Positions 2,111 through 58,171 of a stretch of DNA of 64,000 nt are shown here, piece by piece (positions within the stretch are counted from its first letter, which is position 1; the number at the start of each line of letters is the position of its first letter). The position numbers were made by a program, and so were the translations under genes. Source of the stretch: Crenothrix polyspora (GTDB lineage Bacteria > Pseudomonadota > Gammaproteobacteria > Methylococcales > Methylomonadaceae); the NCBI RefSeq assembly GCF_900163755.1, contig NZ_FUKI01000126.1, positions 62,001 to 126,000 of the forward strand, written 5' to 3'. Below the pieces are notes generated by a model. The model made no database searches, had not been told where the DNA came from, and saw nothing but the letters and a program-made list of their open reading frames with translations.

Positions 2111-2405
2111 AGGCTCAATTGTTCAATCCTATGATCTTCTTATTCTTGGTGACGTATGTACTGCCGAATAATGGTTTCATCCCGCTAAACCGTTGAAACA
2201 AAATAACCAGGCGCCCAAAAATGTTGTCCAACATTGTTCGCTGTTTCTCTCCATACACCCGTGCAAGATGAATAGCACTCTTGCCTTTAATATAACCAAT
2301 CATCTGCGATACTGAATATTTCGGTGGTATCGATATCAGCATATGAACATGATGATATTTACATTTTATTTTTGAATGGCTTAAGCTTTCTTTGTCGTCC
2401 ATCAG
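2111..2405 (-). pseudogene. IS200-family Y1 transposase (tnpA) relic
   Basis: The minus strand reads DDKESLSHSKIKCKYH and then directly HVHMLISIPPKYSVSQMIGYIKGKSAIHLARVYGE, both recognisable from IS200 TnpA. In the family about 45 residues separate KYH from the HuH motif region, so an internal deletion has occurred. After that the frame shifts: the other frames read FWAPGYFVSTV, stop, RDETIIRQYIRHQE, stop, EDHRIEQL, which is the normal C-terminus broken by in-frame stops. The catalytic Tyr region is thus disrupted and the element is dead. Hairpin-forming bases (GCTACCAATAGGTAGC, 2082-2097, and ACCGCTCGAAGCGGT, 1917-1931) lie beyond the 3' side, as is usual for IS200 ends. Confidence 0.75.
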
Positions 2406-2568
2406 ACTCTCCTCTATCACGTACTTGGCGGTTCACGATTACGAGTGTCTTGATGGACTCCTGTTAATATCAAACTTTTGCTGTCTCCCAGGCAGAGTCG
2501 AGGGGATACTTATGATTAATTATTAATTTAAGCAACTATCATTCCGCTCTGTATTGGGATTTTATAAA

Positions 2569-9627: not shown

Positions 9628-9684
9628 TGTTCGTGCTGAGCCTGTCGAAGCATGAACTTGCTCAAGTTATTTCGTGCGCGTTCC
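9586..9684. repeat. family D inverted-repeat element with one REP arm
   Basis: Left end GGGACGTGCATGAAATAACT (from 9586) and right end GTTATTTCGTGCGCGTTCC (to about 9684) are inverted relatives of about 25 bp. Between them (9624-9656) lies one arm of the REP-like sequence, GTTCGTGCTGAGCCTGTCGA. A second, partial relative of the right end with a degenerate REP arm occurs at about 58110-58171. The left end forms the start of the broken antitoxin frame. Confidence 0.55.
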
Positions 9685-9704
9685 TAAGGTTTTCATGGGT
9701 ATAC

Positions 9705-9840
9705 CTTAAGTGGCTACCAATCTAAAACGGGACAGCTTTAAAAAAGCCGTTCGTGGTGAGCTTGTCGAACCATGAACCACAAGTCCTTCGACAAGCTCAG
9801 GACGAACGGATGCCCCGTCTTAAATTGGTAGCCTCTTAAG
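9705..9840. repeat. family C inverted-repeat element carrying the 63-bp REP pair
   Basis: Terminal inverted repeats of about 27 bp: the left end begins CTTAAGTGGCTACCAATCTA (9705), the right end finishes TTGGTAGCCTCTTAAG (9840). The centre (9747-9809) is a 63-bp unit with two inverted REP arms, each containing GAGCTTGTCGAA or its complement. The same 63 bp occurs in perfect reverse complement at 12947-13009 on the other side of secA. Confidence 0.6.
9747..9809 (+). repeat. REP pair, copy 1 (upstream of secA)
   Basis: Begins CCGTTCGTGGTGAGCTTGTC and ends CTCAGGACGAACGG. It has two opposite-facing hairpin arms. The reverse complement is identical, base for base, to 12947-13009. Confidence 0.8.
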
Positions 9841-10070: not shown

Positions 10071-12779
10071 ATGTTGGGTAAGCTAGTCAAATTAGTGATA
10101 GGAAGCCGTAACGACAGGCTGGTCAAGAAGAAAAGAAAGCTGGTAAAAAGCATTAATGCTTTATCTTCTGAGTACGAAAACCTGTCTGAGGATGCTTTAA
10201 AAGCTAAAACTCAGCAGTTTCGTGACCGTTTGGCACAAGGAGAAAAACTCGACAATTTAATAGTAGAGGCCTTTGCAACCGTGCGAGAAGCCTCGGTACG
10301 CGTGTTTGGTATGCGGCATTTCGATGTGCAGCTTATCGGCGGTATGATTCTTCATGACGGCAAAATTGCCGAAATGAGAACCGGTGAAGGTAAAACCTTA
10401 ATGGCCACCTTGGCGGCGTATTTAAACGCCTTACCTGCCAATGGCGTACACGTTATTACTGTCAACGATTATCTAGCCAAGCGTGATTCGGCATGGATGG
10501 GTAAATTATACGGTTATCTGGGTTTGACTACCGGTGTTATTATCAGCCAAATGGATAATGAAGAGCGCCGCGTTGCTTACGCTGCCGACATTACTTACGG
10601 CACTAACAACGAATTTGGCTTTGATTATCTGCGCGATAACATGGCATTTACCATTCAACAAAAAGTTCAGCGCGAATTGAGTTTTGCTATTATCGACGAA
10701 GTCGATTCGATTTTGATTGACGAGGCCAGAACCCCGTTGATTATCTCCGGGTCTACCGAAGAAAATACTGAAATTTATATCAGAATTAATAACATAATAC
10801 CTTTATTGATTAAGCAGGAAAAAGAAGGTACGCCAGGGCATTACACGGTTGATGAAAAAACCCGTCAAGTGCATTTGTCAGAAGCAGGCCATGAGCGCAT
10901 AGAAGAGCTGATGGTTGAGCACGGTTTAATGTTAGACGGTAGCAGCTTGTACGATGCGTCTAATATTCGCTTGATGCACTATTTAAATGCTTCGCTACGC
11001 GCCAACGTATTGTATAGAAAAGATGTGGATTACATCATTACCAATGGCCAGGTTGTTATTGTAGATGAATTTACCGGTCGTATTATGACTGGTCGTCGCT
11101 GGGGCGAGGGCTTGCACCAAGCCATTGAAGCCAAAGAAAGAGTGCCGATTCAAAACGAAAACCAAACGCTGGCATCCATTACCTTTCAAAACTATTTCCG
11201 TCTGTATCACAAACTGTCTGGCATGACCGGCACTGCGGATACCGAAGCGTTTGAGTTGAATAAAATTTACGGCTTGGAAGTTATTGTTATTCCCACTCAT
11301 CGCAATATGATCCGTAAAGACATGGGTGATATGGTGTATTTGACTACCGATGAAAAGTACAATGCGGTGGTCAATGACATTAAACGCTGTGTGGAAAAAC
11401 AACAGCCGGTGTTGGTAGGTACTACGTCGATTGAAAATTCGGAACGTATATCTAATTTACTGAAGCTGCAAGGTGTTCCGCACGAGGTTCTGAATGCTAA
11501 GCAGCATGAGCGGGAAGCGTATATTATTTCACAAGCAGGGCAACCCAGCGCGGTAACCATTGCTACCAATATGGCAGGTCGTGGTACCGATATTGTGTTG
11601 GGGGGTAATCTGGATGCAGAATTAGCCGCCTTGGATAGTTCAGCCAGTACTGCACAAATGCAGCAGATACGTGACGCTTGGCAAGAACGCCATAATCAAG
11701 TGGTTGCCAGTGGTGGTTTGCATGTGATTGGCTCAGAGCGGCATGAGTCACGTCGTATTGATAACCAGTTACGTGGCCGTTCTGGACGGCAGGGCGATCC
11801 TGGTTCAACTCGTTTTTACTTATCTTTGCAAGATGATTTAATGCGTATTTTTGCATCAGACCGTGTTGCGGGGCTGATGAAAAAACTGGGTATGGGGGAT
11901 GGTGAAGCTATTGAACACCCTTGGGTAACCCGATCTATTGAAAATGCCCAGCACAAAGTTGAAGCGCGTAACTTTGATGTCCGTAAAGAAATTTTAGCTT
12001 ACGACGACGTGGCTAACGATCAGCGTAAAGTAGTGTATGCCCAGCGTAACGAGCTAATGGCAGCTGAAGAAGTGTCGGACATTATTACCTCCATACGCGA
12101 AGATGTGGTCAATAATTTGATTACCCAATATATTCCGCCTAAAACAATGGCAGAGCAGTGGAATATTCAGGGCTTGGAAGACCATATTTTGCAGGAGTTT
12201 AACGTTGAAGTGCCTGTGACACAGATGTTTAAGGAAAATAAAGCCTTAAATGAAACTGCATTACGGGCGGGTGTCATTAAAATTTTAGAAGACAGCCACA
12301 AAGACAAAGAGCAGCAAATTTCCACAGAGGTCATGCAGCATTTTGAAAAGTCGGTCATGCTGCAAGTGTTAGACAATAGTTGGAAAGAACATTTGTCAGC
12401 AATGGATTATTTGCGCCAAGGCATTCATTTTAGAGGGTATGCGCAAAAAGATCCTAAGCAGGAATACAAACGTGAAGCCTTTGAAATGTTCACCAGTTTG
12501 CTGGATCGTATTAAGTACGAGGTCATCAGCATCTTATTTAAAGTCAATGTGGCTGATGATGAAGATGTGCAGGCGATTGATGATCAAATGCACTTGCCTA
12601 AGGACATGCACTTTGATCATGCCTTAGCGCCTTCCATAGATGATTATGACAGCGCTCAAGGTAATTTATTGGGTCAAGATGAATTGCCCATACTTAATAA
12701 TGCTAACGTAGGTCGTAACGATCCTTGTCCGTGTGGATCGGGGCTTAAGTTTAAGCAATGTCACGGTAAAATCAGTTAA
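10071..12779 (+). CDS. secA: protein translocase ATPase SecA
   Basis: 902 residues, the normal length for a gammaproteobacterial SecA. Visible parts include the nucleotide-binding motif MRTGEGKT (Gly105-Thr109), the DEAD-like [44 protein letters not shown] and the [11 protein letters not shown] helicase motif VI. The C-terminal zinc-binding tail is [17 protein letters not shown]. SecA binds preproteins and drives them through SecYEG at the inner membrane. The ribosome-binding region is GGAAAAAAAC before the ATG. It stands alone, without the usual cell-division genes upstream, and is flanked on both sides by repeat elements that share a 63-bp inverted REP pair. Confidence 0.98.
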
Positions 12780-12788
12780 AATTAACTG

Positions 12789-12903
12789 GCACTTAGTTAA
12801 TCTTGATATGTCAGGTATATTTTTGACCGGTGTGAGACCTACGAGGTTTTAAAAACCTCGTAGGTCTTTAATAGCATCCAACAGAATAATATTGACTGAG
12901 TAC
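12789..12903. repeat. family B inverted-repeat element, copy B1 (30-bp palindrome core)
   Basis: The ends are imperfect inverted copies (CACTTAGTTAATCTTG on the left, ATTGACTGAGTAC on the right). The centre holds a palindrome of about 30 bp, GACCTACGAGGTTTT followed by AAAACCTCGTAGGTC. It lies just after the secA stop, where the hairpin could also slow transcription, although no T-run follows. Related copies are at 21954-22068 and 57803-57916. Confidence 0.65.
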
Positions 12904-12904
12904 T

Positions 12905-13052
12905 AGTACTTAGTCATTTTTACTTTGTCGAGTACTATAAAATACTCCGTTCGTCCTGAGCTTGTCGAAGGACTTGTGGTTCATGGTTCGACAAGCTCAC
13001 CACGAACGGTTTTTTAAAATTCACACTCGCCAAAATAAAATTGACTGAGTAC
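12905..13052. repeat. family B inverted-repeat element with REP core (copy Bc)
   Basis: The left flank (AGTACTTAGTCA...GAGTACTATAAAATACT) and right flank (CACTCGCCAAAATAAAATTG then ACTGAGTAC) match the two flanks of the other family B copies. The middle is the 63-bp REP pair (12947-13009) in place of the 30-bp palindrome. It lies in tandem with copy B1, separated by about one base. Confidence 0.6.
12947..13009 (-). repeat. REP pair, copy 2 (downstream of secA)
   Basis: Begins CCGTTCGTCCTGAGCTTGTC and ends CTCACCACGAACGG. It is the exact reverse complement of 9747-9809. Confidence 0.8.
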
Positions 13053-13132: not shown

Positions 13133-16100
13133 TCACCTATATTTAACCAACACCGCATTAGCCCCCAACAATACTTTCAACTGTCCAAGCAACACATCAG
13201 TCGGATTAATTCGCCACTGGTCGCCAAACTGCACATTAGCCTGCTCAGTTGCCGTACTGTAAGTAAGTATAATAGGACATGTCCCCCCAGAAAACGGCTG
13301 TAACACGGCCTTTAATTTGGCCATGAATACCTCAGGTGCCAAGGTATTTTCCGCTGCATCCCAGCTTAGCTGAATATGCCGTGCAAACACCACCCGTGCC
13401 TGGTCGATATTGTAGAGCTTGTCGGCATTCAAGCGCAACGTACCCAAATAATCATCTACGCCCAACTCACCTTCAGCCACTAACAAGCTGTCACGGACAA
13501 AAATATCGCGGTAGCTGTCATACACAGGCCCAAAGGCCGCTACTTCCAATCGACCCGTTTTATCATCCAGGGTAGCAAAGCCCATCGTTTTACCGTTTTT
13601 AGTTTGCCGAGTACGCACTTCCACCACCAAACCTGCTACCCGCACATTCATCTTGCCCTTGGAACGCTCCATTTTTTCCAATAAGGCCGCAATACTGCTT
13701 TGGGTAAATTGCTGTAATTCCGGCAAATATTGCTCAATGGGATGGCCAGTTAAAAACAAACCCAAAGTCAGCTTTTCCGCTGCCAGGCGTTCGTTTTCAG
13801 TCCACGGTTCTACGGTGCTTGCGTAAGCGGCGTTTTCAGACTCATTGGCAGACTCCGACATTAAACCAAACAAATCATCCTGACCGGTTTGCGCCATTTT
13901 ACCGTGTTGTTCGGCCACTTTTAACGCCATCGGCAATTCTGCCAGATGCGCGGCGCGGTTATCGTCAAACACATCAAAGGCACCGGCACGGATCAGGGCT
14001 TCCAGTACACGGCGATTAAATTTACGCAAATCCACTCGCTGGCATAAATCGTACAAGCCCGTAAAATCAGCGTGTGCAGCACGGTTTTCCAGCATATCTT
14101 CAATAGCGGCCTGTCCCACGCCTTTTACAGCACCCAGCCCATACACAATATGGCCTTGGGCATCCACAGTAAAACGGTAGTTAGATACGTTAATATCAGG
14201 CGGACAAATCACCAGCTTCATTTGCCGACATTCTTCAATCAATACCACCACCTTGTCGGTGTTGTCCATGTCCGATGACAACACCGCCGCCATAAATTCG
14301 GCCGGATAATGGGTTTTTAGCCACGCGGTTTGATACGCCACCAACGCATACGCGGCACTGTGGCTTTTATTAAAACCGTAACCGGCAAACTTTTCCATCA
14401 AATCGAACACATAGGTGGCGATTTTCTCATCAATCTGATTAGCAATTGCGCCCGTGGTGAATTTTTCACGCTCCTTGGCCATTTCCTCGGCTTTCTTTTT
14501 CCCCATGGCTCTTCGAAGCATATCCGCCCCACCCAGGGTATAACTGGCCAGCTCACGGGCAATCTGCATCACCTGTTCCTGATACAAAATAACGCCGTTA
14601 GTCGGTTTTAAGATAGGTTCTAGCCAGGTATGGGCATACACCGCCTTCGTGCCGTGCTTGACGTTAATATAATCATCCACCATGCCAGACTCCAACGGCC
14701 CTGGGCGAAACAACGCCACCAAGGCGATAATGTCATCAAAACAATCGGGTTTGAGCTTTTTAATCAGCTCTTTCATGCCGCGCGATTCCAACTGGAACAC
14801 GGCGGTGGTCAAGCCGTATTTTAATAGCTCGTAAGTTGGCGCATCATCGCGTGCAATCAGCGTAATATCGACTAACGCGGCGTTAGTTTGCTGTTTTTTA
14901 AGGTTGATGGTTTGCAGCGCCCAATCAATAATGGTCAGTGTGCGCAGCCCCAAAAAGTCAAACTTGACCAAGCCGACCGCTTCCACGTCGTCTTTATCAA
15001 ATTGCGTAACCAGATTACCACCGCCTTGCTCGCAATACAGCGGGGTAAAATCAGTCAGCTTGGTGGGCGAAATCACCACCCCACCGGCGTGTTTTCCGGC
15101 ATTTCTGACCGTGCCTTCCAGGCTCAAGCACATATCAAGCAGCGCTTTGACTTCTTCTTCGCTGTCGTAAAGGAGCTTAAGATCAGGGCTGTCTTGCAGC
15201 GCTTTGGTCAGCGTCATGCCGATTTCAAACGGCACCAATTTAGCCAAGCGATCCACAAAACCATAGGCATGGCCTAATACTCGCCCGACATCACGGATTA
15301 CCGCTTTGGCGGCCATCGAGCCATAAGTGATGATCTGTGCGACATGGTCGCGGCCATAATGCCGTGCCACGTAATCAATCACCTCATCGCGCCGATCCAT
15401 GCAAAAGTCGATGTCAAAGTCGGGCATGGATACCCGTTCGGGGTTTAAAAACCGTTCGAACAACAAATCAAATTCAATGGGATCCAAATCGGTAATTTTA
15501 AGCGCATACGCCACCAATGAACCCGCACCGGAGCCGCGTCCTGGCCCTACCGGAATCAGCTGATTTTTTGCCCATTGGATAAAATCGGCAACAATCATAA
15601 AATAGCCGGGAAAACCCATTTGGGTAATCATCTTCAGCTCAAAATCCAGGCGCTCATAGTAGACAAGACGATTTTCCGCATCCGTGCCTTTACCCACAGC
15701 GGGCGAATGCGTCAGACGCTCTTCCAAACCTTTTAACGCGGCTTCGCCCATCACGTCACCGAGCGTCATACCTTCTGGTACGGGGAAATCGGGCAGAAAA
15801 TTTTTACCCAGTGTTAAGGTTAAATTACAACGCTTGGCAATCTCGACAGAATTTTCCAAGGCTTCGGGAATATCGGCAAATAGCGCTAACATTTCCTCTG
15901 TACTGCGTAAGTATTGCTGGTTAGTGTAGTCTTTGGGTCTACGCGCATCATCCAGCACGCGGCTCTGGTTGATGCACACGCGGATTTCATGGGCGGCAAA
16001 ATCCTTGGCGTGGATGAAACGCACATCATTGGTGGCCACTACCGGCAAGTCCAGCTCTAGCGCCAACGCTACCGCTGCGGCGATATAACGCTCTTCATCG

Positions 16101-16624
16101 GGTTTACCGACGCGTTGCAGCTCCAGATAAAAGCTGTCTTTGAACAATCTCTGCCAGAAAACAGTCAACCTTTTGGCGGCATCCATTTTTTCCACCAATA
16201 ACGCGCGGCCGATATCGCCATCCATTGCACCAGACAGTGCAATCAAACCGCTGTGATTATCTTCTATCCATTCATAACGCAGCATGGGCACGCCCTGATG
16301 CTGGCCTTCTTGATAGGCTTTGGAAATTAACTCAGTGAGGGTGATATAGCCTTGGTGATTATTGACCAGTAAGCTTAAGCGGTAAGGGCTAGCAGGATCT
16401 TCGACGTTGAAAATCAATACGTCAGCACCCGCAATAGGTTTTATACCCAGCCCTAACGCGGCTTTATAAAACTTAACCAGGCCAAACAAATTGGCGTGAT
16501 CCGTTACTGCGATCGCTGGCATGTTTAGTTCAGCTAGCCGCTTAATCAGTGGTTTTATTTTAACAATGCCGTCTACCAGCGAAAATTCGGTGTGGAGTCT
16601 TAAATGGATAAAAGCAGGTTGCAT
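13133..16624 (-). CDS. dnaE: DNA polymerase III alpha subunit
   Basis: 1163 residues, normal for DnaE1. The N-terminal PHP domain starts FIHLRLHTEFSLVDG and continues AVTDHANLFG. The polymerase active site reads PDFDIDFCMDRRDEVIDYV, with Asp402 and Asp404 as the catalytic pair. GPGRGSGAGSLVAYAL, the NKSHSAAYALVAYQTAWLK region and an OB-fold near the C-terminus (RVAGLVVEVRTRQTKNGKTM) are all present. It is the replicative polymerase of the chromosome. The gene converges with secA; the intervening 350 bp is filled with repeat elements. No accA or lpx gene lies next to it, unlike in enterics. Confidence 0.98.
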   Translation of the reverse strand: MQPAFIHLRLHTEFSLVDGIVKIKPLIKRLAELNMPAIAVTDHANLFGLVKFYKAALGLGIKPIAGADVLIFNVEDPASPYRLSLLVNNHQGYITLTELISKAYQEGQHQGVPMLRYEWIEDNHSGLIALSGAMDGDIGRALLVEKMDAAKRLTVFWQRLFKDSFYLELQRVGKPDEERYIAAAVALALELDLPVVATNDVRFIHAKDFAAHEIRVCINQSRVLDDARRPKDYTNQQYLRSTEEMLALFADIPEALENSVEIAKRCNLTLTLGKNFLPDFPVPEGMTLGDVMGEAALKGLEERLTHSPAVGKGTDAENRLVYYERLDFELKMITQMGFPGYFMIVADFIQWAKNQLIPVGPGRGSGAGSLVAYALKITDLDPIEFDLLFERFLNPERVSMPDFDIDFCMDRRDEVIDYVARHYGRDHVAQIITYGSMAAKAVIRDVGRVLGHAYGFVDRLAKLVPFEIGMTLTKALQDSPDLKLLYDSEEEVKALLDMCLSLEGTVRNAGKHAGGVVISPTKLTDFTPLYCEQGGGNLVTQFDKDDVEAVGLVKFDFLGLRTLTIIDWALQTINLKKQQTNAALVDITLIARDDAPTYELLKYGLTTAVFQLESRGMKELIKKLKPDCFDDIIALVALFRPGPLESGMVDDYINVKHGTKAVYAHTWLEPILKPTNGVILYQEQVMQIARELASYTLGGADMLRRAMGKKKAEEMAKEREKFTTGAIANQIDEKIATYVFDLMEKFAGYGFNKSHSAAYALVAYQTAWLKTHYPAEFMAAVLSSDMDNTDKVVVLIEECRQMKLVICPPDINVSNYRFTVDAQGHIVYGLGAVKGVGQAAIEDMLENRAAHADFTGLYDLCQRVDLRKFNRRVLEALIRAGAFDVFDDNRAAHLAELPMALKVAEQHGKMAQTGQDDLFGLMSESANESENAAYASTVEPWTENERLAAEKLTLGLFLTGHPIEQYLPELQQFTQSSIAALLEKMERSKGKMNVRVAGLVVEVRTRQTKNGKTMGFATLDDKTGRLEVAAFGPVYDSYRDIFVRDSLLVAEGELGVDDYLGTLRLNADKLYNIDQARVVFARHIQLSWDAAENTLAPEVFMAKLKAVLQPFSGGTCPIILTYSTATEQANVQFGDQWRINPTDVLLGQLKVLLGANAVLVKYR

Positions 16625-21774: not shown

Positions 21775-21899
21775 CAGCGTTTTCAACTTAGGACAGTTAC
21801 AGCCACCGTTCGTGCTGAGCTTGTCGAAGCACGAACGGCACACTTTGACAAGCTCAGTGCGAACGGTTACGCTGCAACTATTGAACTGTGAAAACGCTG
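21775..21899 (+). repeat. family A MITE, copy A1 (125 bp)
   Basis: The ends are CAGCGTTTTCAACTTAGGAC and its imperfect inverse ending TGAAAACGCTG; TA flanks both sides (21773-21774, 21900-21901). The centre holds the REP pair 21806-21866 (two arms with AGCTTGTCGAA and TTTGACAAGCT). The element contains no coding capacity. Confidence 0.75.
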
Positions 21900-21953: not shown

Positions 21954-22068
21954 AGTACTCAGTCAATCTTGGTATGTCAGGTATATTTTTGATCAGCGTG
22001 AGACCTACGAGGTTTTAAAAACCTCGTAGGTTTTTGCAACACCCGACAAAATAAAGTTGACTAAGTAG
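21954..22068. repeat. family B inverted-repeat element, copy B2
   Basis: Left end AGTACTCAGTCAATCTTGGT, centre palindrome GACCTACGAGGTTTT with its inverse, right end AAAGTTGACTAAGTAG. It is the same family as 12789-12903 and 57803-57916. Confidence 0.65.
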
Positions 22069-23467: not shown

Positions 23468-23592
23468 CAGCGTTTTCAATTTAGAACAGTTACAGCCACC
23501 GTTCGTGCTGAGCTTGTCGAAGCATGAACGGCACACTTCGACAAGCTCAGTGCGAACGGTTACGCTGTAACTATTGAACTGTGAAAACGCTG
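23468..23592 (+). repeat. family A MITE, copy A2 (125 bp)
   Basis: Same length, ends and TA flanks (23466-23467, 23593-23594) as A1, with the REP pair at its centre. Directly after the right TA comes AGCGTTTTCAATTCAC, which resembles another left end and may be a trace of a second insertion. Confidence 0.75.
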
Positions 23593-57802: not shown

Positions 57803-57916
57803 AGTACTCAGTCAATATTATTCTGTCGGATGCTATAAAGACCTACGAGGTTTTAAAAATCCCGTAGGTCTCACACCGGTCAAAAATATACCCGGCATAT
57901 CAAAATTGACTAAATA
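57803..57916. repeat. family B inverted-repeat element, copy B3, inverted
   Basis: Left end AGTACTCAGTCAATATTATT, centre palindrome GACCTACGAGG with an inverse carrying one change, right end AAATTGACTAAATA. Its last bases are interrupted by family A copy A4; the expected continuation CTAG appears on the far side of A4 (58044-58047). Confidence 0.62.
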
Positions 57917-58041
57917 CAGCGTTTTCAACTTAGGACAGTTACAGCCACCGTTCGTGCTGAGCTTGTCGAAGCACGAACGGCACACTTCGACAAGCTCAGT
58001 GCGAACGGTTACGCTGTAACTATTGAACTGTGAAAACGCTG
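57917..58041 (+). repeat. family A MITE, copy A4 (125 bp)
   Basis: Same sequence organisation as A1-A3, with TA at 57915-57916 and 58042-58043. It is inserted in the terminal repeat of family B copy B3. Confidence 0.75.
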
Positions 58042-58109
58042 TACTAGGTAATGCAATACGTAACGTTAACACGGTGCAGAATATAAATTAAACAGCTTAA
58101 AATCCGGTT

Positions 58110-58171
58110 TTTGTTCGTTCTGAGCTTGTTAAGACATGGGTTTGCTTAAATTATTTCGTGCGCGTTCTGTG
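58110..58171. repeat. degenerate REP arm with family D right end
   Basis: GTTCGTTCTGAGCTTGTTAA followed within 20 bp by GCTTAAATTATTTCGTGCGC; the same order occurs at 9629-9684. It is close upstream of the EpsE-like gene and may overlap its promoter. Confidence 0.4.

What the first reader, a model, noticed from the sequence alone, without database searches (positions are those of the whole stretch)
12789..13052. Core exchange between tandem family B elements
B1 and Bc lie next to each other with matching ends. B1 has the palindrome GACCTACGAGG with inverse, while Bc has the 63-bp REP pair. Since the flanks of both cores match, the central module appears replaced, not the whole element.
Basis: partly seen in the sequence, partly recalled or inferred. 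Interest (0 to 1): 0.6.

Follow-up and report, generated by a model that had tools for sequence, protein, structure and literature searches.

The report
Two IS630 mini-transposons side by side
Two tiny non-coding transposons sit end to end behind the secA gene of a methane-oxidising bacterium; their ends match because both use the ends of one IS630-type insertion sequence, and their centres (a hairpin in one, a REP pair in the other) are interchangeable modules, one of which also occurs inside an unrelated transposon shell.

Summary
B1 (12789-12903, 115 nt) has a 31-nt perfect palindrome. Bc (12906-13052, 147 nt) has a 63-nt inverted REP pair. They share one TA. Both are MITEs of an IS630-family insertion sequence with about 20 copies in this genome (41 ends, control 0; a complete relative encodes HTH_32 + DDE_3, NCBIfam transpos_IS630). 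Elements sit in C-TA-G and duplicate TA.

The flank match is the 28-nt IS terminal repeat. Beyond 28 nt the flanks are unrelated, apart from one borderline pair. A core swap at this locus is not supported. Bc is an established family in two genera (about 16 copies here, 26 in G051, 1 in G091). It most likely inserted beside an older B1, because each end of an inserted element restores CTAG (nine such junctions genome-wide).

The modular-core idea survives genome-wide. The same shell carries at least five different interiors across genera. The 63-nt Bc core occurs letter for letter in an unrelated shell D (8-bp target duplication). The core is more conserved than its flanks (97% against 82-83% between genera). 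One Bc copy and one D copy share the same two core substitutions. How cores move is open: the only intact RAYT gene found lies beside a different palindrome.

The parts
12789..12903 (.). B1: 115-nt MITE, palindrome core, 84 nt of shell; left end decayed (GCACTTAGTTAAT, flank TG instead of TA)
12836..12866 (.). B1 core: perfect 31-nt palindrome GACCTACGAGGTTTTAAAAACCTCGTAGGTC
12876..12903 (-). B1 right terminal inverted repeat, 28 nt (GTACTCAGTCAATATTATTCTGTTGGAT)
12904..12905 (.). TA shared by B1 and Bc: target duplication; junction reads AGTAC-TA-GTACT (CTAG at 12903-12906)
12906..13052 (.). Bc: 147-nt MITE, REP-pair core, 84 nt of shell; other copies in this genome identical or nearly so over about 150 nt
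12906..12933 (+). Bc left terminal inverted repeat, 28 nt
12947..13009 (.). Bc core: 63-nt inverted REP pair, identical letter for letter to the core of the commonest D-shell elements
13025..13052 (-). Bc right terminal inverted repeat, 28 nt (GTACTCAGTCAATTTTATTTTGGCGAGT)
10071..12779 (+). secA, ends 9 nt before B1
   Evidence: translation ends [22 protein letters not shown]; naming from knowledge of SecA
13133..16624 (-). DNA polymerase III alpha subunit gene (dnaE), convergent to secA; ends 80 nt beyond Bc
   Evidence: naming from the protein sequence
21955..22068 (.). another B element with palindrome core, CTA/TAG flanks, 114 nt
57804..57917 (.). another B element, reversed; an A-shell element has inserted at the TA of its end
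9712..9833 (.). D-shell element (TIR GGCTACC), 122 nt, carrying the same 63-nt REP-pair core as Bc; near-perfect 8-bp target duplication
21775..21899 (.). A-shell element (TIR CAGCGTTTTCA, TA on both sides), 125 nt, with a related REP pair; further copies near 23468, 57261 and 57919

Best explanation
B1 and Bc are two different non-autonomous miniature elements (MITEs) of one IS630-family insertion sequence. Shown: they share its 28-nt terminal inverted repeats and its C-TA-G target with TA duplication. Inferred: the IS transposase moves both in trans. Shown: each inserted element begins with G and ends with C, so inserting into C-TA-G leaves a fresh CTAG at both ends, and elements stand head to tail sharing one TA. 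Inferred: Bc (recent, many identical copies) inserted at the CTAG at the right end of the older B1. Shown: the interior between the repeats is free to vary; the palindrome, REP pair, single REP, other hairpins or plain sequence occur in the same shell in different genomes, and the same 63-nt REP pair occurs in an unrelated shell. Inferred: cores are occasionally exchanged or converted between shells at REP homology, not in this tandem pair.
For: IS ends TACTYAGTCACTCTT: 41 in the genome, 0 in the control, nearly all at contig ends; the longer pattern gives 42 against 0. A complete related IS of 1217 nt in C-TA-G has HTH_32 and DDE_3 and matches NCBIfam transpos_IS630. Among 29 end-to-end units found in the own-genome loci (a few of them chance pairings), 20 have CTA on the left, 22 TAG on the right and 19 TA on both sides. 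Ends of B, Bc and IS agree at positions 1-11 (88-95%) and 12-28 (z 3.2-5.8); at 29-40 Bc resembles neither B nor IS ends, except B right end against Bc left end. Nine tandem junctions, 0 in the control; also in Methylovulum and Methylobacter psychrophilus beside the IS. Bc in G051 and G091. Other cores in the shell. Core in shell D: 63/63, right flank TTTTTTAAA shared (p 0.006), left flank not. Core diverges less than shell between G000 and G051 (2/63 against about 15/84, p 0.008).
Against: The full IS of this genome is not assembled (only its ends at contig ends), so mobilisation rests on shared ends and on relatives' IS. One inner-flank comparison (B right end against Bc left end, 29-40) is above chance before correction, and B1 and Bc both have exactly 84 nt of shell, so an older common shell with exchanged cores is not excluded. 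Shared core substitutions between Bc and D are few (3 of 8, p 0.02).
Confidence: 0.85

Rival explanations
1. Local core replacement: Bc arose here from a second B copy whose palindrome was replaced by a REP pair.
For: Same shell length (84 nt) in both; inner flank of B's right end resembles Bc's left end (z 2.9); old Bc copy L016 has a left end with a 19-nt run identical to B's right end.
Against: Bc is a family of about 16 copies here, about 26 in G051 and one in G091 of another genus; left flanks do not match in the same orientation; CTAG insertion explains the adjacency.
Confidence: 0.04
2. Cores move as REPINs: a REP-associated tyrosine transposase inserts the REP pair into MITE shells, so several shells received the same REPIN.
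For: The core is a REP doublet forming a hairpin, as REPINs are defined (PMC3116915); a RAYT gene exists in the genome (C36, 210 bits); single REPs occur in the same shell in G016.
Against: The RAYT gene is flanked by another palindrome (GGGTAGAGGCGTGAGCC..) and not by this REP; the other Y1 genes are ordinary IS200/IS605; all six REP pairs in the window lie inside transposon shells; Bc and D share 9 nt outside the REP pair on one side.
Confidence: 0.2
3. Independent capture: each MITE formed separately when IS630 ends closed around different local DNA, with no exchange of cores afterwards.
For: Similarity of Bc to B limited almost wholly to the 28-nt TIR; many unrelated interiors in the shell.
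Against: Same core in shells B and D at 63/63 and more conserved than its flanks; a Bc copy and a D copy share two substitutions.
Confidence: 0.35
4. The core is shared because its sequence is under selection (protein binding or transcription ending), so it stays identical in several shells without exchange.
For: Palindrome arms of B covary (12 compensated double changes; 421 paired cells against a shuffle maximum of 411); core conserved above flanks; G005 has an independently inserted B element right behind secA.
Against: Letters of the Bc core outside the long stem (GGACTTGTGGTTCATGG) are conserved too across shells, and other copies of the shell tolerate other cores.
Confidence: 0.2

Closest known systems
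RUP elements of Streptococcus pneumoniae (IS630-Spn1 MITEs)
   Same: About 107-bp MITE with ends of a resident IS630-family IS, TA target, presumed mobilisation in trans (PMC2229807)
   Different: Here several MITE families with different hairpin cores share one set of ends, target is CTAG and tandem arrays occur; host is a methanotroph lineage
IS630 / ISY100 (IS630-Tc1-mariner family)
   Same: HTH plus DDE_3 transposase, insertion into TA with duplication (PMC2170065); IS630 prefers TA in CTAG (Tenzen and Ohtsubo 1991, title cited)
   Different: B1 and Bc encode nothing; the related IS is read in two overlapping frames
REPIN (inverted REP doublet) and BIME
   Same: Bc core is two inverted REPs with a spacer, forming a long hairpin (PMC3116915; PMC2817692)
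   Different: It lies inside DDE-transposon-like shells with their own terminal repeats and target duplications, and the genome's RAYT gene is not flanked by this REP
Correia/NEMIS elements of Neisseria
   Same: MITE with and without an extra internal module (107 and 155 bp, IHF site; PMC2229807)
   Different: There one module is present or absent; here alternative unrelated cores occupy the shell

Membership tests
IS630-family MITE | terminal inverted repeats of an IS630-family IS | tested here: met
IS630-family MITE | TA target duplication (here in CTAG) | tested here: met
   19 of 29 units have TA on both sides; for B1-Bc itself only the shared TA is intact, the outer ones have decayed (TG left, GTA right)
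IS630-family MITE | no coding capacity, 50-500 nt, many copies | tested here: met
IS630-family MITE | partner IS with IS630 transposase in the same genome | tested here: inconclusive
   41 ends with N- and C-terminal coding parts; central part not assembled; complete relatives match NF033545
IS630-family MITE | mobilised by the IS transposase | not testable with these tools
   needs a transposition assay
REPIN (Bc core) | two inverted REPs forming a hairpin, many copies | tested here: met
REPIN (Bc core) | REP flanks a RAYT gene in the genome | tested here: not met
   (about 1.4 kb on each side of the RAYT gene)
REPIN (Bc core) | free-standing mobile unit | tested here: inconclusive
   all six REP pairs of the window lie in TIR shells; not counted over the whole genome

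The most novel reading that the evidence does not exclude
REP pairs in this lineage are spread as interchangeable cargo of several unrelated DDE-transposon shells, swapping between shells by recombination at the REP homology, instead of by a REP-specific tyrosine transposase; short hairpin repeats and MITE shells would then evolve as separate, recombining modules.
Probability: 0.3. Interest if true: 0.6.

Novelty: new variant of a known kind. Interest (0 to 1): 0.4.

Why it matters
It separates two things usually treated together: the ends that make a small element mobile and the hairpin repeat inside it. If cores pass between shells, REP-type repeats can spread through a genome without their own transposase, and repeat families defined by their centres and by their ends will give conflicting histories. 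The CTAG rule also gives a simple reason why such elements pile up in tandem.

Tried and rejected
First guess IS701 (YTAR target): two DDE_5 genes found, neither at these ends; rejected. A single-genome history (D older, Bc made in this lineage) was dropped when Bc turned up in G051 and G091. Rfam: nothing above gathering; sub-threshold hits are taken as chance. A first flank comparison for D elements ran past the element borders and understated identity; redone with borders. The A/Bc chimera at the start of contig C5 is only suggestive, because contig ends can be misassembled. Tandem enrichment beyond CTAG targeting is weak when only intergenic CTAG sites are counted (p about 0.02). The exact palindrome was found in none of 273 other genomes sampled from the class; that sample held few members of the family, where copies do occur.

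Full report
What is there. The gap between the convergent genes secA (stop at 12779) and dnaE (stop at 13133) holds two elements. B1, 12789-12903, is 115 nt with a 31-nt perfect palindrome at 12836-12866. Bc, 12906-13052, is 147 nt with a 63-nt inverted REP pair at 12947-13009. They share the TA at 12904-12905. Repeat search and folding confirm both cores. Each element without its core is 84 nt.

What the ends are. A genome search with the ends found 41 copies of TACTYAGTCACTCTT, none in the reversed control, nearly all about 40-55 nt from contig ends. These are the ends of a high-copy insertion sequence that broke the assembly. Its outer parts encode the start and end of a transposase. A complete relative in a Methylobacter tundripaludum MAG is 1217 nt, sits in C-TA-G, and encodes HTH_32 and DDE_3 in two overlapping frames, matching the NCBIfam model transpos_IS630. 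B, Bc and IS ends agree over 28 nt. Beyond that Bc does not resemble B or IS ends, except for one borderline pair, B right end against Bc left end. In the direct comparison the left flanks of B1 and Bc do not match in the same orientation; B1's right end matches both ends of Bc. So the 'matching flanks' are the terminal repeats of one IS630-family IS.

Why they are neighbours. Elements begin with G and end with C and insert at C-TA-G, so each insertion leaves CTAG at both ends. The junction pattern occurs at 10 places in the genome and not in the control; one of these, at 3 mismatches on C97, is not a junction, leaving nine. They include B-Bc-IS triples on C41 and C121. The same arrangement stands beside the IS in Methylovulum miyakonense (L167) and Methylobacter psychrophilus (L172). 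CTAG is scarce (69 in the window, 15 intergenic), so element ends are a noticeable share of the available targets. Ten or so Bc copies have identical cores and near-identical flanks, while B1 is diverged and its left end decayed, so Bc most likely came second (inference). The two other genomes of the genus have no element behind secA.

Not a local swap. Bc with the same core and shell has about 26 copies in G051 and one in G091, another genus. It is an established family, not a product of this locus.

Modular cores. The shell holds a palindrome (this genus, G005), a REP pair (this genome, G051, G091), a single REP (G016), a GTAGGGGCGG-type hairpin pair (Methylovulum), or no evident hairpin (M. 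psychrophilus). Conversely the 63-nt REP pair occurs letter for letter in shell D, with ends GGCTACC and an 8-bp target duplication (for example GAATAATT in L026), and a related REP pair occurs in shell A, with ends CAGCGTTTTCA and TA on both sides. B and D flanks are otherwise unrelated, save 9 nt on one side (p 0.006). The core is better conserved than its shell: between G000 and G051 Bc 97% against 82-83%, among D copies 96% against 79-82%. Of 8 core variants in Bc, 3 are also in D (p 0.02), and Bc copy L009 and D copy L085 carry the same pair C6T and T34C. This suggests, without proving, that cores pass between shells.

Is the core a REPIN? By structure yes (PMC3116915). But the only RAYT gene that passes its model lies next to a different palindrome, the other tyrosine-transposase genes are ordinary IS200/IS605, and all REP pairs in the window lie in transposon shells. 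How the core reached several shells is not settled.

Hairpin of B. Across 31 copies the palindrome arms covary beyond shuffling. A B element was inserted separately right behind secA in another genus (G005), and the B1-Bc junction itself scores as terminator-like. A terminator role is possible but untested.

Verdict. Observation confirmed; interpretation half right. Ordinary in kind (IS630 MITEs), with an unusual modularity of cores that deserves a proper phylogenetic test.

Noticed in passing
L003, L063, L071, L074, L014 (own genome); Several palindrome-core B elements have the outer 11 nt of one terminal repeat replaced, at the same junction, by a module CGTATTGTGGCGGATTGCC..GGCGAATCCACCCTACA that is itself partly palindromic.
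   Followed up: partly
L024/L051 (G000 contig C5, 1-116): Apparent recombinant: left half of an A-shell element joined within the REP pair to the right half of Bc. It lies at a contig start, so it may be an assembly artefact.
   Followed up: partly
L096 (G005, right behind secA): In another genus a B-type element with the same palindrome sits directly at the secA stop codon, an independent insertion.
   Followed up: partly
window 57804-58043: An A-shell element has inserted at the TA of the end of a B element, showing their relative ages there.
   Followed up: no
window 2115-2420 (minus strand): Remnant of an IS200/IS605-type Y1 transposase gene.
   Followed up: partly
L220 (G000 contig C36), gene 1345-1890: A RAYT gene (210 bits) with its own palindrome GGGTAGAGGCGTGAGCCGAAACCCATC upstream, unrelated to the REP of Bc.
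   Followed up: partly
L035 (G000 contig C56, whole 3031-nt contig): Three similar small exported-looking proteins in a row (repeated W-R-D-P-x-F-G-N-x-G-W motif), with a B element and an A element between them.
   Followed up: no
window 9638-9700 and 58112-58167: A single REP unit followed by a shared tail AAGTTATTTCGTGCGCGTTC, possibly another element family.
   Followed up: no
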